Source: a virus. Taken from it: DNA of 31,595 nucleotides. Made by a program: the position numbers and the translations under genes. A model generated the notes under the pieces. It had not been told where the DNA came from. It did not search any database and saw nothing but the letters and a program-made list of their open reading frames with translations. This document shows positions 12,994 through 26,232 of the stretch, piece after piece (positions within the stretch are counted from its first letter, which is position 1; each line of letters opens with the position of its first letter). The DNA is taken from positions 1 to 31,595 of IMG/VR virus record IMGVR_UViG_3300030103_001056; one strand, 5' to 3'.

Positions 12994-13436
12994 ATAAAGA
13001 TAAAATTAGAGAAGAAATAGCCGAAGATGAGGGGTGTAAATATGAAATCTATTTAGATCACCTCGGTCTTCCAACCTGTGGTATCGGACATCTTATTACC
13101 GAAAACGATGAGGAGCATGGTAAACCTGTAGGCACTGTTGTCGAACAAGATCGTGTACAAAATCTTTTTGCTTTAGATATGGCAGTAACTCTTGACGAAT
13201 GCAAAGTGTTATACCCAGACTTTGATGATTTACCAGAAGAAGCTCAACATATTATTTGTAATATGATGTTTAATATGGGCAGACCTAGACTTAGCAAATT
13301 TAAAGGTATGAAAGCTGGTGTCGATGCTCGCGATTGGGATAAGGCCGCAGATGAAATGGTGGACTCACGTTGGTATACGCAAGTCCCCAATAGAGCTAGG
13401 CGGCTGGTGGATCGTATGAGGGCTTTGGCTGAATAG
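12990..13436 (+). CDS. Endolysin, T4-type lysozyme (glycoside hydrolase family 24)
   Basis: This 148-residue enzyme aligns with T4 lysozyme over the catalytic region: EDEGCKYEIYLDHLGLPTCGIGH corresponds to T4 [22 protein letters not shown], so Glu14, Asp23 and Thr29 occupy the positions of the E11-D20-T26 triad. The C-terminal RWYTQVPNRARRLVDRM matches T4 WYNQTPNRAKRVITTF. It hydrolyses the MurNAc-GlcNAc bond of peptidoglycan. There is no signal peptide or SAR segment, so it should need the adjacent holin for access. Length is typical (T4: 164). Its last 41 bases are antisense to the HTH gene on the other strand. Confidence 0.93.
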   Translation: MNKDKIREEIAEDEGCKYEIYLDHLGLPTCGIGHLITENDEEHGKPVGTVVEQDRVQNLFALDMAVTLDECKVLYPDFDDLPEEAQHIICNMMFNMGRPRLSKFKGMKAGVDARDWDKAADEMVDSRWYTQVPNRARRLVDRMRALAE

Positions 13437-13614
13437 TCAACTCGTACCCCATTGTTTCTAATACTTTATTGAAGTTAGACAAGGTCGGCTGTCTTTGTCT
13501 AGCTTCCCAAGTATATACAGTAATTACACTAACTCCTGTATCGTCAGTAACTTGTTTTTGACTTAATCCAGACTTTTTTCTTATCGTTTTAAATTCATCA
13601 ATTAAATCAGCCAT
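13396..13614 (-). CDS. XRE/Cro-C1-type HTH DNA-binding protein
   Basis: On the minus strand I take ATG at 13614 (72 residues); an in-frame TTG at 13623 would add three residues. Residues about 18-40 form a clear helix-turn-helix (LSQKQVTDDTGVSVITVYTWEAR), with LSQKQV and V..YTWE.r typical of the XRE family, and the domain is preceded by DEFKTIRKKSG. It is about the size of a lone XRE domain plus a short Pro-rich tail (KPSYDPPAA). It overlaps the SNF2 helicase end by 13 bases, so both are probably one transcript. A repressor of its own operon is the expected role; possible operators are the ATACT..AGTAT repeats upstream of the helicase. Confidence 0.8.
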   Translation of the reverse strand: MADLIDEFKTIRKKSGLSQKQVTDDTGVSVITVYTWEARQRQPTLSNFNKVLETMGYELTIQPKPSYDPPAA

Positions 13615-15047
13615 TTTTTCCAATCTTCTCCAAGAACTTGTGTTGCTATATTTATCTTTTTACGCAAAGCAGTAACAATCTTTTCGTCTACTGTTTTTTC
13701 AGCAACTAGATCAATATATGTCACAGACGAAGTTTGTCCTATCCTGTGCGCTCTATCCTCGGATTGCAACCTTACTTCAAGATCATAATTATTACTATAA
13801 TAAATTACAGTATTTGCTGCAGTAAGCGTGAGACCATATCCACCAGTTCTAGGCTGTCCTACAAAGAATTTTAAACTATCGTCTTCTTGGAATCTGTTTA
13901 CTATGTCTTGTCTCTCTTCTCCAGGAGTGTCTCCAAAGTAAGACGCTACAGCTTCAGAACCATAGACCTTTGCTATTTCACTTTCTATCTGCATTATATC
14001 GTGTCTATAGTTAGCCCAGATAATCGCTTTACCATTAACCTCTTCAAGAATAGACATGAGTTCAGATAATCTATTATTCTTTATTTCTATAGTTAGTCCG
14101 TCATCTGTATTAACAAACCCACAACTAACTTGATGCAGTCTTAATAATTGTGTAATAACGGCATTAGCAGATACCATCTCCAGCCCATCTAAAATAGCAA
14201 CTGCTGTTTTCTTTAGCTGATTGTATATTTTCTTTTGTTCGGGCGTTAATTCTATAGACCTCTTAATATAATTTTTGTCAGGTAGATCTAAGCATTCATC
14301 TTTCGTAACTCTGTACGAAAAAGGTTGTATTGATTGTGTTAGTTCGTCCAAGTTTCTAAATCCTAATATCTGTTGATAACTATGCGACCCTGTCGTTCTT
14401 CTGACCATGTCAGCGTATCTACTACAAAAAGCGTAATACGATCTAAACCCTAAAAGCTCTTCATCTAAAAACAAGAACTGAGAGTATAGATCTAACGGAG
14501 ATTTAGTTATCGGAGAACCTGTTAATATTCTTTTATACTTAGCAAGTTTAGAAACTCGTACTGCGGCCTTGGTTCTTTTGGCCTTGTGGTTTTTAATAAC
14601 TGTAGATTCATCTATTGCAACCAAAGTTTTACCTTGGTGACTTTTAATAAACTTACTTGCAACCTCTTCTGCTTTGCCAACTGACAACGCTTCTATATTC
14701 ATTACGAGAACATGAAGATCGAAGTTTGGCGACCATATAGCTCTTATAGAGTCTTTATGAGCTACAGTAAGAGGAGACGCCCAGTATGCTGTATTACACT
14801 CTATATGGTCAGGCATATGAGCTGGGATCTCTTTACCAACCCAGTTTTTGTAAACTCCTTTGGGAGCGAATATAACAGCTGAATCTATTTTGCCAGAATC
14901 ATAAAGAGCTGATATAGTATCTATCAACACTTTCGATTTACCTGTACCCATGTCCATCAATAAGGCGTATTCTTCTTTTTGCCAAGAAGCCTCTAAAGCC
15001 TGTAATTGATGTTCATAGGGTTTCGTCTTAAATTTAAAACCACCCAT
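13602..15047 (-). CDS. SNF2-family SF2 helicase/ATPase
   Basis: This 481-residue protein shows the SF2 helicase motifs in order: Q-like YEHQLQALEA, Walker A MDMGTGKSK (31-39), motif Ia IFAPKGVYKNW, Walker B AIDEST (145-149; DEAH variant), motif III LTGSP (176-180), GYGLTLTAANTVIYY, and motif VI EDRAHRIGQ near residue 435. RAHRIGQ and the spacing are typical of SNF2 proteins, which use ATP to translocate on double-stranded DNA. Phage members are commonly found in replication regions. The ribosome site is AGGAGAAAG just before the start (minus strand). It reads opposite to all flanking genes and is transcribed towards the lysis genes; a role in replication or recombination is inferred. Confidence 0.93.
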   Translation of the reverse strand: MGGFKFKTKPYEHQLQALEASWQKEEYALLMDMGTGKSKVLIDTISALYDSGKIDSAVIFAPKGVYKNWVGKEIPAHMPDHIECNTAYWASPLTVAHKDSIRAIWSPNFDLHVLVMNIEALSVGKAEEVASKFIKSHQGKTLVAIDESTVIKNHKAKRTKAAVRVSKLAKYKRILTGSPITKSPLDLYSQFLFLDEELLGFRSYYAFCSRYADMVRRTTGSHSYQQILGFRNLDELTQSIQPFSYRVTKDECLDLPDKNYIKRSIELTPEQKKIYNQLKKTAVAILDGLEMVSANAVITQLLRLHQVSCGFVNTDDGLTIEIKNNRLSELMSILEEVNGKAIIWANYRHDIMQIESEIAKVYGSEAVASYFGDTPGEERQDIVNRFQEDDSLKFFVGQPRTGGYGLTLTAANTVIYYSNNYDLEVRLQSEDRAHRIGQTSSVTYIDLVAEKTVDEKIVTALRKKINIATQVLGEDWKKWLI

Positions 15048-15122: not shown

Positions 15123-15734
15123 ATGAACTATTCTCGTAGCGAGGCACTATATAATCACCGCATGGCAGGACGTATTCGTAGGTTACATATAAAACCTATG
15201 AATGGAGATGAGCAAAATATAGCAGCTCATAGTTGGGGCGTAGCCATGATTTTATTAGACCTTTTTCCAGCGGTATCTAGAAGTTGTTTAATATATGCAC
15301 TTCGTCATGATGTTCCAGAAATAGTTACAGGTGATATTCCTGCTAATGTAAAATGGGAGCATCCTGGTCTTCAAAATACTTTAGAATTTATAGAGGAAGG
15401 GTTTTTAAATAAAATGGGTTGGCCTACGGAAAGTAAAAAACACGGAGTTCCGCATTTAACAGGGTCAGAAAATTGGCATAACGAAAGACTTTATATAAGA
15501 ATAGCGGATCGTGTAGAGCTTTTATTTTATTGTTTAGAACAAATTTACATGGGTAATTTGTTATTGATGGATGTTTTTAAAAATGCTCGTGATAAATTAA
15601 AAGATCATTTAGAGCTGATCGATCCTTCACAATCAATGGATGTGCATAAATATATAAAGGGCTATAGTGATTTTCTAGCAGAAAAGTTTCCTAAAGATCA
15701 TCCAGTGCCTCGCGACGTCTTATCTATCTCATAA
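15123..15734 (+). CDS. HD-domain 5'-deoxynucleotidase (YfbR-like)
   Basis: This 203-residue protein has the YfbR pattern: RIRRLHIKP, EQNIAAHSWGVA (His36), LRHDVPEIVTGDIP (His62-Asp63, Glu66, Asp71) and IADRVELL (Asp129). These are the HD metal ligands and the GDIP substrate motif of enzymes that dephosphorylate deoxyribonucleoside 5'-monophosphates. Length matches E. coli YfbR (199 residues). The start follows AGGAAGAAAGTA. It is the first gene of the rightward replication block. In this phage it may scavenge host dNMPs or remove ordinary dTMP to favour modified nucleotides; the latter is inference from the downstream modification genes. No other annotation fits as well. Confidence 0.85.
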   Translation: MNYSRSEALYNHRMAGRIRRLHIKPMNGDEQNIAAHSWGVAMILLDLFPAVSRSCLIYALRHDVPEIVTGDIPANVKWEHPGLQNTLEFIEEGFLNKMGWPTESKKHGVPHLTGSENWHNERLYIRIADRVELLFYCLEQIYMGNLLLMDVFKNARDKLKDHLELIDPSQSMDVHKYIKGYSDFLAEKFPKDHPVPRDVLSIS

Positions 15735-21317: not shown

Positions 21318-22157
21318 ATGGCATCTATTAGAAAGAAACTCGCGGTAAACGCAAATAATTCAAAAAATACTCGTATGGATATAGCTAGTGCTGGTACTCT
21401 TGCTAACTGGCGTCCTGATGAGTTAGCTCATATATCAAGGTTCTGTAAAATGGGACAGATAATTATGGGCAGGGCTAAACAACTTGGTCGTCCTGTAGAT
21501 ATTTTAGAAATAGGATGTGGTGAAATTTGGACGTTACGTTATCTTTATAAGGCGTTCGTTTCTCGTAAATCAGAAATCGTAAACAGCTACACAGGTATGG
21601 ATATTGATCCTGCTTGTTTAGAAGATTGGTGGGTTGACGATAATCTTCCTGTTACAGAACATAAATGGTTTAAAACTATGTCAGGGGAAAAAGGTCGTAT
21701 CGTTTTACAAGACTTAACTGTTAATCCTGAGCCGCCTGTAGAAGATGAGTCTGTAGATGTATTTATGACAACAGAAGTTATTGAACATATGGGGAGAGAG
21801 TTCATTGAGCCATGGATCGAAGCCGCCTCACGTAAACTCCGTTCAGGGGGCGTTGCGTATGTCTCGACGCCGAACCACGATGGATCGAACGACGTCCTCC
21901 CCAAAGACCACATCTATGAGTGGGGATACCAAGAACTCAAAGAACTCCTCGAAAAATACTTCGTTATCGAAAGACATTACGGCACGTTTACCCAAATGAA
22001 TAACTTTAAAAATAACCACCGCGCAACTGCTCGTTGGCCACAGCATGTTATTGATGATATTCAGGGTCGTTTTGATAAACACTGGCAAAGGGTTATTCTT
22101 GCTACCGCTTATCCAGAAACAGCTAATAATGTGAACTGGATTATGAGGAAGAAGTAA
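21318..22157 (+). CDS. Class I SAM-dependent methyltransferase
   Basis: This 279-residue protein shows the Rossmann methyltransferase motifs: motif I LEIGCGEIW (63-71), the acidic end of strand 2 YTGMDID (91-97), DVFMTTEVIEHM (147-158), and LRSGGVAYVSTPN (174-186). EVIEHM and the post-motif resemble Methyltransf_11/23-type enzymes acting on small molecules or nucleotides; no DNA-methylase (N/D)PP(Y/F) motif is visible. The substrate is unknown. The gene overlaps the next, a pyrophosphorylase-like protein, by one base, so it is likely part of base modification, perhaps methylating an added side chain. The ribosome site is AGGAGAAAG. Confidence 0.85.
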   Translation: MASIRKKLAVNANNSKNTRMDIASAGTLANWRPDELAHISRFCKMGQIIMGRAKQLGRPVDILEIGCGEIWTLRYLYKAFVSRKSEIVNSYTGMDIDPACLEDWWVDDNLPVTEHKWFKTMSGEKGRIVLQDLTVNPEPPVEDESVDVFMTTEVIEHMGREFIEPWIEAASRKLRSGGVAYVSTPNHDGSNDVLPKDHIYEWGYQELKELLEKYFVIERHYGTFTQMNNFKNNHRATARWPQHVIDDIQGRFDKHWQRVILATAYPETANNVNWIMRKK

Positions 22158-22981
22158 TGGAGCCTGTTGAAAGGTTTTTCTGGTGGATCGAGGAGAGACA
22201 CCGCATTTTTCGTAGGAAGAATGCTGGTATCTCTCGCGACGACTGGACTAAAGACGAAATCTTAAAATCGTATCGCTTTACTAATCCATTTAGAGAAAAC
22301 GATAAGACAACTATCTGGTTTAGAGAAAATATGCGAGACCCACTTAAAGACCAATCTGAGGTCTTGATGGCCACGATTATATTCAGATGGTTTAATCTTA
22401 TCGAAACAGGTAAGACTCTTTTGTCTAATAACCTCCACATAGATTGGAAGCCAGAAGTGGCGCGACAGGAGATAAAGAAACAATCTAAATATGTAACAGG
22501 TGGTTACATAATTAAAACTCCTGACGGAATGGATAAAGTTGATGGGGTTATATGGTGTATCGACAAAATTTGGAAACAACGTGATAACCTCATTAACGAG
22601 TTAAAAGATAGTAGTCTTCAACGCTCTTGGCATGTTGTTATGCAATTTCCGTACCAAGGTCCATTCATGGCGTATGAAATAATTACTGATTTGCGTCATA
22701 CACATATTCTTGATCAAGCAAGAGATATCTATACATGGGCTAATGCTGGTCCAGGAGCCATGCGAGGTCTTAATCGTATACATGGTAGAGAACTAAATTA
22801 TAAAAGTAGAAACCATGATTGGAACCAAGAAATGTTTGAGCTTCTTAAGTTCTCTCCAGAATATCTTAGTGAAAAATTTCCTAAATTAGAAATGAGGGAT
22901 ATAGAGCATAGTTTATGCGAGTTTGATAAATATGAACGTGTTCGTAATGGCGAAGGCGCACCAAGAGGGAGATACCCATGA
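22157..22981 (+). CDS. Alpha-glutamyl/putrescinyl-thymine pyrophosphorylase-like protein (HMUDK_hel/aGPT-PPlase family)
   Basis: This 274-residue protein has the signature I associate with this helical family: FFWWIEERHRIFRRKNAG (7-24), WTKDEILKSYRFTNPFRENDKTTIWF (30-55), GGYIIKTPDG, MQFPYQGPFMAYEIITDLRHT (162-182, a helix-hairpin-helix-like piece) and YTWANAGPGAMRGLNRIHGRE (192-212). In hypermodified phages, members are proposed to replace the diphosphate of 5-diphosphomethyl-dU with an amine or amino acid; a related inactive domain is fused to hmdU DNA kinases. No P-loop is present, so it is not the kinase. It lies between a methyltransferase and a TS homologue, which supports base modification. 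The exact chemistry is unproven. Confidence 0.75.
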   Translation: MEPVERFFWWIEERHRIFRRKNAGISRDDWTKDEILKSYRFTNPFRENDKTTIWFRENMRDPLKDQSEVLMATIIFRWFNLIETGKTLLSNNLHIDWKPEVARQEIKKQSKYVTGGYIIKTPDGMDKVDGVIWCIDKIWKQRDNLINELKDSSLQRSWHVVMQFPYQGPFMAYEIITDLRHTHILDQARDIYTWANAGPGAMRGLNRIHGRELNYKSRNHDWNQEMFELLKFSPEYLSEKFPKLEMRDIEHSLCEFDKYERVRNGEGAPRGRYP

Positions 22982-23958
22982 GAGTCTTTTCGGGAAGAAA
23001 TGTTAATGAGCTGTTTCAAATAGCTGTTATGAGTTTTAGAGATGCGCATATGATCTCTGAAGATTCGCGTAATGGTAAAGTTCTAAGTTTCCCCAGACCA
23101 GTAACCAGTGTGTATAAATATCCTAAAGAACGTGTTTTACTTTCTCCAGAAAGAAACTGTAATCCTTTTTTCCATTTTATTGAAGGCTTATGGATGATCG
23201 AAGGTCGTGATGATCTTGGAACTTTAACCATGTTCGCTAAAAAGATGGCAGACTTCTCTGATGATGGCGAGCATGTTAATGGAGCATACGGCTACCGCTG
23301 GAGAGAATGGTTTGGTAGGGATCAACTATCTATGGTCATGGACTTACTAAAGAAAAACCCATTAGATAGACGTATTGTTTTACAGATGTGGGATCCGTTC
23401 AGAGATCTTGGTTCAAGCTCTAAAGATGTGCCTTGTAATACTCAAGTATATTTTAGGTGTGTTCATGATCGTCTAGACATGACAGTCACTAATCGTTCTA
23501 ATGATATGATCTGGGGGATGTATGGCGCAAATGCTGTTCATTTTAGTATGGTGCAAGAATATGTAGCAAGTATGGTGGGTATGCCTGTTGGTAAATATTA
23601 TCAGGTAAGTAATAATGCTCATATCTATATGGACGTCTGGGAGCCATTAAATCAAAAATTACCTATAGGCATTGCTCCTTGTTTTTATGAAATATCAGAA
23701 GTTAAACCCTCGCCTCTTGTAGATAATCCTAATACCTTTGATATAGAGTCAGCTCTATTTTTCGAGTGGCTACACGAAGGTGATCATTTTGGTTTTAAAT
23801 ATGAAAACTCTGTATTTGATAAAACTGCAATGCCTATGGTTGAAGCGTGGTGGCTTTATAAAGAAGGCATGCTTTCTGAAGCTATAGATAAAGCTAAAAC
23901 AATATTGGCAACTGATTGGAGAAAGGCTTGTGTAGAATGGCTAGAAAGAAAAAAGTAG
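22978..23958 (+). CDS. Thymidylate synthase family protein, probable dUMP hydroxymethylase
   Basis: This 326-residue ThyA-type enzyme retains Glu69 (IEGLWMIEG), GAYGYRWREW (102-111, TS YG..WR), DRRIVLQMW (Arg131-Arg132), catalytic Cys153 (VPCNTQ), RSND (173-176), Asn185 in YGANAVHFSM, and NAHIY (His215, Tyr217). The Asn aligned with E. coli Asn177 predicts uracil rather than cytosine substrates. Relatives with PCNT and YGANAVH are common in phages and include dUMP hydroxymethylases that make 5-hydroxymethyl-dUMP. In this operon a hydroxymethylase is more likely than an ordinary dTMP synthase, but the sequence alone does not settle it. It overlaps both neighbours. Confidence 0.85.
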   Translation: MRVFSGRNVNELFQIAVMSFRDAHMISEDSRNGKVLSFPRPVTSVYKYPKERVLLSPERNCNPFFHFIEGLWMIEGRDDLGTLTMFAKKMADFSDDGEHVNGAYGYRWREWFGRDQLSMVMDLLKKNPLDRRIVLQMWDPFRDLGSSSKDVPCNTQVYFRCVHDRLDMTVTNRSNDMIWGMYGANAVHFSMVQEYVASMVGMPVGKYYQVSNNAHIYMDVWEPLNQKLPIGIAPCFYEISEVKPSPLVDNPNTFDIESALFFEWLHEGDHFGFKYENSVFDKTAMPMVEAWWLYKEGMLSEAIDKAKTILATDWRKACVEWLERKK

Positions 23959-24311
23959 CATATGAAAAGCACGAAGATTATATGAAGCGTAGGTTTAAAG
24001 AAGAAAAGACGAGTAATATAATCTCAGTAGTCGGTAATCTATCTAAGGAGGATGTAGAGGGCTTAGATAAAGCTGAGAAGTCCTATGGCGACAGTTGGAG
24101 ACAGCGAGGCGGTATAGGTGCGTTCATGATGCTTGCTCGTAAATGGGATCGTTTAGAAAAACAGGTAAACGAGTTCGGTTATGACATATTCAATGCTATA
24201 GATAACGATACTCGTGACGAAGGTATCCTGGATGACATACGCGATTTAAGACGATATCTGTTTCTAGTAGAAGCGCATATGAGGATTGTTTTGGGTAGCC
24301 AAGATGACTAA
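23937..24311 (+). CDS. Nmad1/DUF1599-like nucleotide-modification-associated protein
   Basis: I place the start at ATG 23937 (124 residues), within the 3' end of the TS gene and with AGAAAGG upstream; a TTG at 23916 is less likely. The core KSYGDSWRQRGGIGAFMMLARKWDRLE (49-74) and DDIRDLRRYLFLVEAHMRI (99-117) fits the YGDSW proteins called Nucleotide modification associated domain 1, a group found beside modified-base genes and thought related to MazG-like all-alpha proteins. I see acidic residues that could bind metal but cannot name a reaction. Its position after pyrophosphorylase-like and TS genes agrees with the family name. Confidence 0.6.
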   Translation: MARKKKVAYEKHEDYMKRRFKEEKTSNIISVVGNLSKEDVEGLDKAEKSYGDSWRQRGGIGAFMMLARKWDRLEKQVNEFGYDIFNAIDNDTRDEGILDDIRDLRRYLFLVEAHMRIVLGSQDD

Positions 24312-24351
24312 TAACATAGTAAACTCTTCCAAACAAGATAGGAAGAAAGCT

Positions 24352-26232
24352 ATGCCAAACAGTCCTTTACAAGCTCCTTTATTTAGTCCTGATAGCACGT
24401 GGACTCCCCCAGAGTTCTTACCCGACCTTTCAAAAGCTAAAGATATTTGTATTGACCTTGAAACTAACGATCCATCACTTAAGGAAAAAGGTGCTGGTTG
24501 GGCGAGGGGTGAGGGAGAAGTTGTTGGTTACGCTGTGGCTACTGACTCTTGGTCAGGGTATTTACCTGTAGCGCATGCCGCTGGTGGTAATCTTGATAAA
24601 GGTCTCGTTAAAAGATGGATACAAGATCAAATAAAAAGTGGCTCGAATATCATATGCCACAATGCTTCTTACGATATCGGTTGGATGCGTAGAGAAGGTA
24701 TTAAACTACATGGCAATAAAATCATCGACACGATGGTTGCAGCTCCATTAATAGATGAAAATAGATTTAGTTATGCGTTAAACGCTCTCGGTAAAGAATA
24801 CCTAAAAGAAAAGAAAGATGAAAAGTTATTGAGAGATGCCGCTGAAGCATGGAACGTTGATGCTAAAGGTGGGTTACATCATTTACCTCCTATGTATGTT
24901 GGTCCATACGCAGAGCAAGATGCCTCATTGACACTTAAATTATGGGATTGGCAAAAGCAAGAATTAACACGGCAAGATTTATGGTCGATCTTTGACCTTG
25001 AATCTGGGATTACTCCTTTACTTATAGATATGCGCTGGGAAGGTGTTCGTGTTGATTTAGAAAAGACATCTAAAATATCAAAAATGTTTAGGGCTAGAGA
25101 GGAGGAGGCTCTTCATCATATAAAGTCAGCATGTGGCGAAGATATAGAAATTTGGGCTAACGCATCTATAGAAAAAGCATTCAACAAACTAGGCATTGAG
25201 TTTCCTCGCACCGAGCTTGGCGCACCATCGTTTCAACAAACATGGCTAGAGAATCATCAACATGATGTGCCGAAGATGATTGTCAAAGCTAGAAAGATGA
25301 ACAAAGCAAGGACTACATTCATTGATGGAATGATTATGTCAAACCAAGTTAATGGAAGAATACACGCTGAGTTGCATCCTTTACGCTCTGACGATGGCGG
25401 CACAGTTACTGGTAGGTTTAGTTATAGTAATCCAAACCTACAACAAGTTCCAGCTAGAGATCCAGAGATAGGTAAAGCCATAAGATCGTTGTTCATACCA
25501 GAAGAGGGATGTCAATGGGGTGCTTTCGATTACTCGCAACAAGAACCACGGATCGTTGTACATTATTCTTCTGTAATGGGGCTAAGAGGCGCAGACGAAG
25601 CTGTAGAGGCTCTTAAGAATAAAGACGCTGACTTTCATCAAATCGTTGCCGATATGGCAGGGATACCGCGTAAGCAAGCTAAGAACATTAACCTTGGTTT
25701 GTTTTATTCTATGGGTGTTGGTAAGTTATCAGGTGAGCTGGGGCTTACGATAGATGAAGGTAAACAATTATTTTCACAGTATCATGAACGTGTTCCGTTT
25801 GTAAAAGCATTAACAGAAAGAGCAATGCAACGAGCCGCTCAGCAAGGTAGTATCAGAACACTGTTAGGTCGTAGATGTCGTTTCGATAAATGGGAACCAA
25901 ATCAGTTTGGCACTCGTAAAATTATGGATCATAAAACTGCTTTTGCAGAATATGGAATGGGCGGTATTAAACGTGCATTTACATATAAAGCTATGAATAG
26001 ATTAATCCAAGGCTCGGCGGCTGATATGACTAAGATGGCGATGAAGCTCTTATATGAAGAAGGAATCAAGCCACATATTCAAGTTCATGATGAGTTAGAC
26101 TTTTCTGTAGAGTCAAAAGAACAGATTGAAAAGATAAAAGATATAATGGAGCATTGTGTAGAGATGCGTGTACCTAGTAAGGTTGACGTAGACCTTGGAC
26201 CAAACTGGGGAGATGCAAATGACTCTGGATGA
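24352..26232 (+). CDS. DNA polymerase I (family A) with 3'-5' exonuclease, Leu762 type
   Basis: I choose ATG 24352 because AGGAAGAAAGCT precedes it, as for other genes here; ATG 24304 and TTG 24286 are in frame. Exonuclease motifs are IDLETND (Asp35, Glu37), ICHNASYDIGW (Asn104, Asp108) and YAEQDAS (Tyr186, Asp190). Polymerase motif A is GAFDYSQQEPR (Asp393, Glu398), motif B is RKQAKNINLGLFYS (Arg440, Lys444, Leu448, Tyr452), and motif C is QVHDELDF (about 577-584). Leu448 takes the place of E. coli Phe762, a residue that tunes ddNTP selectivity and fidelity. There is no 5' nuclease domain, as in T7 polymerase. It is the replicative polymerase candidate. Confidence 0.95.
   Translation: MPNSPLQAPLFSPDSTWTPPEFLPDLSKAKDICIDLETNDPSLKEKGAGWARGEGEVVGYAVATDSWSGYLPVAHAAGGNLDKGLVKRWIQDQIKSGSNIICHNASYDIGWMRREGIKLHGNKIIDTMVAAPLIDENRFSYALNALGKEYLKEKKDEKLLRDAAEAWNVDAKGGLHHLPPMYVGPYAEQDASLTLKLWDWQKQELTRQDLWSIFDLESGITPLLIDMRWEGVRVDLEKTSKISKMFRAREEEALHHIKSACGEDIEIWANASIEKAFNKLGIEFPRTELGAPSFQQTWLENHQHDVPKMIVKARKMNKARTTFIDGMIMSNQVNGRIHAELHPLRSDDGGTVTGRFSYSNPNLQQVPARDPEIGKAIRSLFIPEEGCQWGAFDYSQQEPRIVVHYSSVMGLRGADEAVEALKNKDADFHQIVADMAGIPRKQAKNINLGLFYSMGVGKLSGELGLTIDEGKQLFSQYHERVPFVKALTERAMQRAAQQGSIRTLLGRRCRFDKWEPNQFGTRKIMDHKTAFAEYGMGGIKRAFTYKAMNRLIQGSAADMTKMAMKLLYEEGIKPHIQVHDELDFSVESKEQIEKIKDIMEHCVEMRVPSKVDVDLGPNWGDANDSG

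What the first reader, a model, noticed from the sequence alone, without database searches (positions are those of the whole stretch)
21318..24311. Probable thymine-hypermodification operon
Four overlapping genes encode a class I methyltransferase, an alpha-glutamyl/putrescinyl-thymine pyrophosphorylase-like protein, a TS-family protein with PCNT and YGANAVH, and an Nmad1-like YGDSW protein, followed by PolA. The pyrophosphorylase and Nmad families are known from gene sets that replace thymine by decorated hydroxymethyluracil derivatives. The combination with a methyltransferase in first position suggests a methylated or otherwise new side chain. The sequence shows the genes and overlaps; the pathway is inference.
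Basis: partly seen in the sequence, partly recalled or inferred. Interest (0 to 1): 0.85.

Follow-up and report, generated by a model that had tools for sequence, protein, structure and literature searches.

The report
Methyltransferase-type thymine hypermodification phage cassette
A marine phage carries a compact gene set that probably makes 5-hydroxymethyluracil in place of thymine and then caps it with a methyl group, using a methyltransferase where well-studied relatives use a DNA kinase; this points to an undescribed natural DNA base.

Summary
The four overlapping genes exist as described, directly before PolA. Profiles confirm a class I SAM methyltransferase (MT), PF18723, and a TS-family enzyme closer to a CMP hydroxymethylase than to thymidylate synthases. 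PF18723, formerly aGPT-PPlase1, is now named the helical domain of 5-hmdU DNA kinase (hel). The small YGDSW protein is conserved, but no member tested matches Nmad1/DUF1599.

The new result concerns partners. The M6/ViI route needs a P-loop 5-hmdU kinase (PF18748) and an amino-acid transferase (PF18724). Both are absent here and from 36 related IMG/VR contigs. MT takes the kinase slot: in 49 non-redundant loci it precedes hel, nearly always overlapping it. Other hel loci carry glycosyltransferases instead. MT never shares a locus with kinase, ADDT or glycosyltransferase modules. Distant MT homologs (about 30%) sit with a dCMP-type hydroxymethylase in all 39 AXL3-type loci that could be scored. 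AXL3 DNA resists 35 of 37 restriction enzymes (PMC7504290).

Best reading: 5hmU is made, incorporated, recognised by hel and O-methylated by MT, giving 5-methoxymethyluracil. Cassette and partner swap are shown; the chemistry is inferred. The hydroxymethylase-hel pair near PolA was known in pelagiphages (PMC9599517); the MT partner was not noted there.

The parts
21318..22157 (+). Class I SAM-dependent methyltransferase (MT), 279 aa; takes the slot held by the P-loop 5-hmdU kinase in M6-type phages
   Evidence: PF13489 1.5e-8 and PF08241 1.2e-6; model pLDDT 80, Foldseek hits are class I SAM methyltransferases of small-molecule type; directly upstream of hel in 49 of 49 MT-type loci; dN/dS 0.027/0.419
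22157..22981 (+). HMUDK_hel (PF18723, formerly aGPT-PPlase1), 274 aa; proposed 5hmU-DNA recognition or base-flipping subunit
   Evidence: PF18723 6.6e-44; 35-42% to M6 gp55 and PaMx11 gp50; model pLDDT 95.6, Foldseek best hit 5-PmdU glycinyltransferase 8z2n (prob 0.95), then 8-oxoG DNA glycosylases (prob 0.66-0.80), all with weak E-values
22978..23958 (+). TS-family pyrimidine hydroxymethylase, predicted dUMP 5-hydroxymethylase, 326 aa (DVPCN; RSNDMIWGMYGANAVHF)
   Evidence: PF00303 1.1e-23, phrog_5131 4e-106; nearest solved structure CMP 5-hydroxymethylase 5b6d 3.8e-30 versus thymidylate synthase 6e-21, with Asn where the CMP enzyme has Asp
23937..24311 (+). Conserved YGDSW..RGG.GAFM..ARK.DR protein, 124 aa, function unknown; core gene shared by MT, GT and some kinase types
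   Evidence: 28 invariant columns in 13 diverse members; 44.6% to Pam3_54; no Pfam match
24304..26232 (+). DNA polymerase A; would have to accept hmdUTP
   Evidence: PF00476 1.2e-64; best relatives 023Pt_psg01 (55%) and pelagiphages HTVC027P and HTVC023P (50%)
15123..15734 (+). YfbR-like 5'-deoxynucleotidase (HD); possible nucleotide-pool accessory
   Evidence: PF12917 1.1e-15; HD gene also in Pam3 and the FkbM/GT-type and some kinase-type cassettes

Best explanation
The cassette replaces thymine by a methylated 5-hydroxymethyluracil. (1) The TS-family enzyme hydroxymethylates dUMP to 5-hmdUMP (inferred from family and active-site residues). (2) Kinases of host or phage make 5-hmdUTP and PolA incorporates it (inferred). 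(3) Hel, an all-helical protein whose closest solved folds are the 5-PmdU glycinyltransferase and 8-oxoguanine DNA glycosylases, binds 5hmU in DNA and presents the base (inferred from fold and from its pairing with the 5-hmdU kinase in other phages). (4) MT, encoded directly upstream and probably translationally coupled to hel, transfers a methyl group from SAM to the 5-hydroxymethyl oxygen, giving 5-(methoxymethyl)-2'-deoxyuridine as a protective cap (inferred). Shown here: the genes, their linkage, the absence of recognisable kinase and amino-acid transferase, and the exchange of catalytic partners around hel.
For: Hel is present, but PF18748 kinase and PF18724 ADDT are absent from the window and 36 related contigs, and found in all four controls M6, PaMx11, Sonora and Pam3. 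In six near-complete contigs the only credible P-loop protein is the helicase. MT lies directly upstream of hel in 49/49 non-redundant MT loci and none of these carries kinase, ADDT or glycosyltransferase modules; 47/49 show a stop/start overlap, a possible overlap or no gap. TAGT is absent from the window and all 16 other MT-type contigs tested, and present in 3 controls. In the nearest 56-kb relative the displayed modification-related families are hel, the TS family, MT and a YfbR-like HD protein. In the 13 closest loci MT is the most conserved cassette gene (87.6% versus PolA 78.3%, hel 70.8%). The TS-like enzyme is nearest to a hydroxymethylase, with Asn at the base-recognition position. 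Independently, 39 AXL3-type loci join an MT homolog to a dCMP-type hydroxymethylase (Asp motif) without hel. AXL3 DNA is cut by only 2 of 37 enzymes, both with A/T-only sites (PMC7504290). Bare 5hmU protects little: SP8 DNA resists 8.3% of enzymes (PMC7653180), so a further cap makes sense.
Against: No biochemical data. MT substrate and acceptor atom are inferred from linkage only; MT could act on nucleotides, a protein or another base. The Foldseek similarity of hel to DNA glycosylases has weak E-values (0.27-0.93). No cultured phage with the MT-hel cassette is in the phage collection. The window and all comparison contigs are classed linear, so an undetected divergent kinase cannot be fully excluded; the PF18748 profile scores even PaMx11's kinase below cut-off. 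AXL3's modification is chemically uncharacterised and MT identity to it is only about 30%.
Confidence: 0.5

Rival explanations
1. MT acts at the nucleotide level: it methylates hmdUMP (hmdCMP in AXL3-type phages) before polymerisation, and hel does something else such as binding modified DNA during replication.
For: MT is linked to hydroxymethylases also where hel is absent (39 AXL3-type loci with nucleotide enzymes); MT is of the small-molecule methyltransferase type, not a canonical DNA methyltransferase.
Against: In MT-hel phages MT is coupled to hel in nearly all loci and holds the slot of a DNA-level kinase.
Confidence: 0.2
2. The SAM enzyme transfers a group other than methyl (for example aminocarboxypropyl or carboxymethyl), or methylates carbon or nitrogen of the base.
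For: Class I folds include such transferases; phage CmoX uses carboxy-SAM on cytosine (PMC12783734).
Against: No CmoA-like or other SAM-derivative gene was recognised in the nearest 56-kb relative among the families displayed (11 weaker Pfam families not shown). Linkage to hydroxymethylases in two settings favours the hydroxyl as acceptor.
Confidence: 0.12
3. A full M6-type amino-acid pathway with a divergent or host-supplied kinase and transferase, MT methylating the amino-acid side chain.
For: Hel and hydroxymethylase are shared with M6 and PaMx11.
Against: No PF18748, PF18724 or small P-loop kinase in related contigs including near-complete ones.
Confidence: 0.06
4. Plain 5hmU (no further decoration), with MT serving an unrelated role, for example acting on a host factor.
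For: SP8 replaces all T by 5hmU without decoration (PMC7653180).
Against: MT was found beside hel or a pyrimidine hydroxymethylase in every locus with enough flank to be scored; strong conservation and coupling.
Confidence: 0.09
5. Ordinary nucleotide metabolism: the TS-like gene is a true thymidylate synthase and there is no DNA modification.
For: PF00303 membership.
Against: Nearest structure is a hydroxymethylase; similar (44%) and syntenic to the M6 TS-like gene, whose phage has 5-NedU in its DNA (PMC6449724); hel is otherwise tied to hypermodification loci.
Confidence: 0.03

Closest known systems
Pseudomonas phage M6 / PaMx11 and Pseudanabaena phage Pam3 thymidine-hypermodification loci
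   Same: Hydroxymethylase-like TS (about 42-45%) and PF18723 hel (about 36-46%) shortly before PolA; HD protein; Pam3 also has the YGDSW gene.
   Different: They carry the P-loop kinase PF18748 directly upstream of hel, plus ADDT PF18724 and PLP/radical-SAM or FAD/acetyltransferase genes; the window has MT in the kinase slot and none of the others.
HTVC023P-type pelagiphages, clades V, VIII and IX (PMC9599517)
   Same: TS plus aG/PT-PPlase1 (= hel) near PolA already reported as a hypermodification pair; PolA of the window is closest to this phage group.
   Different: The paper does not mention a methyltransferase (0 occurrences); in the passages read it does not treat the absence of the kinase or the exchange of partners.
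Stenotrophomonas phage AXL3-type cassettes
   Same: MT homolog (about 30%) linked to a TS-family hydroxymethylase and nucleotide enzymes; AXL3 DNA is restriction resistant.
   Different: Hydroxymethylase has the Asp motif of dCMP enzymes; has a dNMP kinase-like gene and a PRA-PH-type pyrophosphohydrolase; no hel.
TAGT and other glycosyltransferase cassettes with hel
   Same: Hel, hydroxymethylase, YGDSW gene and PolA shared.
   Different: Glycosyltransferases (PF20691 TAGT, GT4-like), FkbM methyltransferase or radical SAM in place of MT.

Membership tests
M6/ViI-type thymidine hypermodification pathway | TS-family dUMP hydroxymethylase | tested here: met
   By homology only: phrog_5131 4e-106; nearest structure CMP 5-hydroxymethylase; Asn motif. 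Activity not testable.
M6/ViI-type thymidine hypermodification pathway | HMUDK_hel / aGPT-PPlase1 (PF18723) | tested here: met
   6.6e-44 over residues 4-265
M6/ViI-type thymidine hypermodification pathway | P-loop 5-hmdU DNA kinase (PF18748) | tested here: not met
   Absent from window and 36 related contigs; 4 of 4 controls positive; P-loop scan of 6 near-complete contigs. Contigs may be incomplete.
M6/ViI-type thymidine hypermodification pathway | Amino acid:DNA transferase ADDT (PF18724) | tested here: not met
   Absent from the same contigs, 4 of 4 controls positive
M6/ViI-type thymidine hypermodification pathway | Decorated thymine in virion DNA | not testable with these tools
   No isolate; needs LC-MS
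Class I SAM-dependent methyltransferase | Methyltransf_11/23 domain and fold | tested here: met
Canonical DNA methyltransferases (m5C, m6A, m4C) | Match to a DNA methyltransferase family | tested here: not met
   No such Pfam family at E<=1; Foldseek top hits are not DNA methyltransferases
Nmad1 / DUF1599 (23937-24311) | Match to the Pfam profile | tested here: not met
   No match in window protein or 12 relatives at E<=10
HhH DNA-glycosylase-like fold (hel) | Structural similarity to HhH glycosylases / 5-PmdU glycinyltransferase | tested here: inconclusive
   Prob 0.66-0.95, TM-score (query-normalised) 0.35-0.45, E 0.27-0.93

The most novel reading that the evidence does not exclude
HMUDK_hel is a general reader or base-flipping subunit for 5-hydroxymethyluracil DNA whose catalytic partner is interchangeable: P-loop kinase, O-methyltransferase, TAGT or GT4 glycosyltransferases, each giving a different capped thymine. 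In the window's type the product is 5-(methoxymethyl)uracil, a base I know of in no organism, and its MT family makes the corresponding methoxymethylcytosine in AXL3-type phages.
Probability: 0.4. Interest if true: 0.85.

Novelty: new variant of a known kind. Interest (0 to 1): 0.72.

Why it matters
Thymidine hypermodification is known as a kinase plus amino-acid-transferase pathway. Here a large set of marine phages keeps the 5hmU-making enzyme and the PF18723 protein but swaps the kinase for a methyltransferase or glycosyltransferases. That predicts at least one undescribed natural DNA base, gives a testable role to PF18723 as a shared recognition subunit, and offers a cultured phage (AXL3) in which the methyltransferase prediction can be checked at once.

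Tried and rejected
Nmad1 assignment of the YGDSW ORF: rejected by profile search of 13 members. Kinase hidden elsewhere in the genome: searched by profile in the window and 36 related contigs and by P-loop pattern in six near-complete contigs, not found. Glycosyltransferase elsewhere in MT-type contigs: TAGT absent and my own GT models absent; the PF00534 search is uninformative because it also missed a known GT-type contig. Solved structure of hel by sequence: none. MT by sequence against PDB: only chance matches. Hel as a domain fused to the kinase in ViI: in ViI the two matches are separate genes. Lee 2018, Lee 2021 and Iyer 2013 are not held, so statements on their biochemistry rest on Pfam names, papers citing them and own knowledge. 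A 'methoxymethyl' phage base was not found in the literature held.
Full report
Observation. The window is a 31.6-kb IMG/VR record classed linear. Pfam gives Methyltransf_23 1.5e-8, HMUDK_hel PF18723 6.6e-44, Thymidylat_synt 1.1e-23 and DNA_pol_A 1.2e-64. The YGDSW ORF has no Pfam match, nor has any of 12 relatives a relevant one at E<=10. It is nevertheless strongly conserved and is similar to Pam3_54, annotated 'nucleotide modification'. All three tested genes are under purifying selection.

What PF18723 is. In M6 the Pfam scan assigns gp54 (labelled 'terminase small subunit') to PF18748 '5-hmdU DNA kinase', gp55 to PF18723 '5-hmdU DNA kinase, helical domain' and gp51 to PF18724 'Amino acid:DNA transferase'. 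So the window gene is the counterpart of gp55, not of the amino-acid transferase. Published work, as cited in PMC6449724, describes 5hmdU being phosphorylated in DNA by a 5hmdU DNA kinase and then decorated.

What is missing. PF18748 and PF18724 are absent from the window and from 36 related contigs (28-66 kb), and present in M6, PaMx11, Sonora and Pam3 used as controls. Six near-complete contigs contain no credible small P-loop kinase, only the helicase (up to about 2.4 kb of three of them was not fetched). In four near-complete MT-type contigs my models for kinase, ADDT, glycosyltransferases, radical SAM and FkbM find nothing, while the MT-hel-HMase-YGDSW-PolA block is complete. In the 56-kb relative G030 the displayed Pfam matches relevant to modification are hel, Thymidylat_synt, Methyltransf_23 and YfbR-like (11 weaker families not shown).

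Partner exchange. From scans of IMG/VR, GTDB contigs and phage records I collected 146 hel loci that differ by more than 5% in hel. They fall into modules: MT (49), TAGT glycosyltransferase (26), GT4-like with or without FkbM methyltransferase (13), a second GT4-like family, mostly with SPASM radical SAM (7), and kinase with or without ADDT, PLP, radical-SAM and FAD genes (about 25). The rest are ADDT-type loci without a called kinase, unclassified or cut loci, or distant homologs in Patescibacteria. TAGT, FkbM, CTP-transferase, SPASM and GT4-type identities are from Pfam; the matches of the second GT family are weak. MT never co-occurs with another module, and directly precedes hel in 49/49. 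On a quick hel tree a five-state partner label needs at least 12 changes; the MT loci form two neighbouring clades, grouped with GT and PaMx11-type kinase loci in a supported set of 68 rows (SH-aLRT only, some long branches). The sample is what capped, hel-seeded scans returned, so the counts are not population frequencies.

MT and its constraint. In 47 of 49 loci the MT stop overlaps, can overlap or abuts the hel start. In the 13 closest loci MT is 87.6% identical to the window, against 78.3% for PolA, 70.8% for hel and 62.3% for the hydroxymethylase. MT's model is a class I SAM fold close to small-molecule methyltransferases, with no match to DNA methyltransferase families.

An independent setting. 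Only four phage records match MT by tblastn at E<=1e-5: AXL3 (two records), PW916 and ctUtU524. In the two examined, MT sits beside a PRA-PH-type hydrolase, a dNMP kinase-like gene, a TS-family protein and dCMP deaminase. Among 43 AXL3-type loci, 39 hold the TS-family gene; the four that lack it have little downstream flank. None has hel. The motif there is RSSDxWLGVPYDVFNF, with Asp where the window family has Asn (RSNDxIWGxYGANAVHF). Asp/Asn at this place separates cytidine from uridine enzymes (established for TS and dCMP hydroxymethylase, own knowledge; the MilA alignment shows Asp). AXL3 DNA was cut by only TasI and Tru1I, both with A/T-only sites, of 37 enzymes (PMC7504290). T4 DNA, with all C modified, is likewise cut completely by MluCI (AATT) and MseI (TTAA) (PMC7653180). 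So the same MT family accompanies a uridine-type and a cytidine-type hydroxymethylase; what the two settings share is a 5-hydroxymethylpyrimidine.

Hel as DNA reader. The hel model is confident (pLDDT 95.6). Its best PDB neighbours are the 5-PmdU glycinyltransferase of PaMx11 (prob 0.95) and archaeal/Thermotoga 8-oxoguanine DNA glycosylases (prob 0.66-0.80), all at weak E-values. This suggests, but does not prove, a base-binding role.

Mechanism. Hydroxymethylation of dUMP, incorporation by PolA, recognition of 5hmU by hel and O-methylation by MT is the most economical pathway from these facts. Biological logic: DNA with only 5hmU (SP8) resists 8.3% of type II enzymes, while phosphorylated or decorated 5hmU resists more (PMC7653180). 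The main uncertainty is whether MT works on DNA with hel or on nucleotides, and whether the group is methyl.

Relation to the known. The HMase-hel pair near PolA was already described for HTVC023P-type pelagiphages as a hypermodification pair (PMC9599517), and PolA places the window near that group; the host is not shown. The paper contains no mention of a methyltransferase. The finding is therefore a new variant of thymidine hypermodification, not a member of the M6/ViI amino-acid pathway, two of whose defining enzymes were sought and not found.

Noticed in passing
L004:8393-8956 (M6 gp54), L005:7432-8001 (PaMx11 gp49): The 5-hmdU DNA kinase genes of M6-like phages are labelled 'terminase small subunit' in public records although M6 gp54 matches PF18748 (7.7e-18) and PaMx11 gp49 matches it more weakly.
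   Followed up: yes
L278, L283, L284, L288, L310, L317, L318 and related loci: Hel plus TAGT glycosyltransferase cassettes with the hydroxymethylase, and mostly the YGDSW gene, next to PolA: a probable glycosylated-5hmU type in marine phages.
   Followed up: partly
L033, L038, L039, L041, L045, L185, L203: Hel with a GT4-like glycosyltransferase, SPASM radical SAM and (in some) a cytidylyltransferase-cupin fusion: another candidate hypermodification chemistry.
   Followed up: partly
L156-L169 (Patescibacteria MAG contigs): Distant hel homologs (about 22-26% where aligned at length) beginning 'MELP..LK.LYRHW' in Patescibacteria contigs without modification enzymes recognised nearby; in L163 one sits between a TS-family gene and dCMP deaminase. 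Role unknown.
   Followed up: partly
L122:9220-10203 and L123 (kinase-like genes): The AXL3-type 'thymidylate kinase' is a two-part protein: P-loop N-terminal half and a C-terminal half with a conserved HPQ(H/Y)..RF end that resembled a uracil-DNA-glycosylase-type domain by eye; not tested.
   Followed up: no
window 13396-15047, minus strand: SNF2-type helicase (PF00176) and a small HTH-like gene on the strand opposite to the rest of the window; both are conserved in the close relatives L002 and L003.
   Followed up: no
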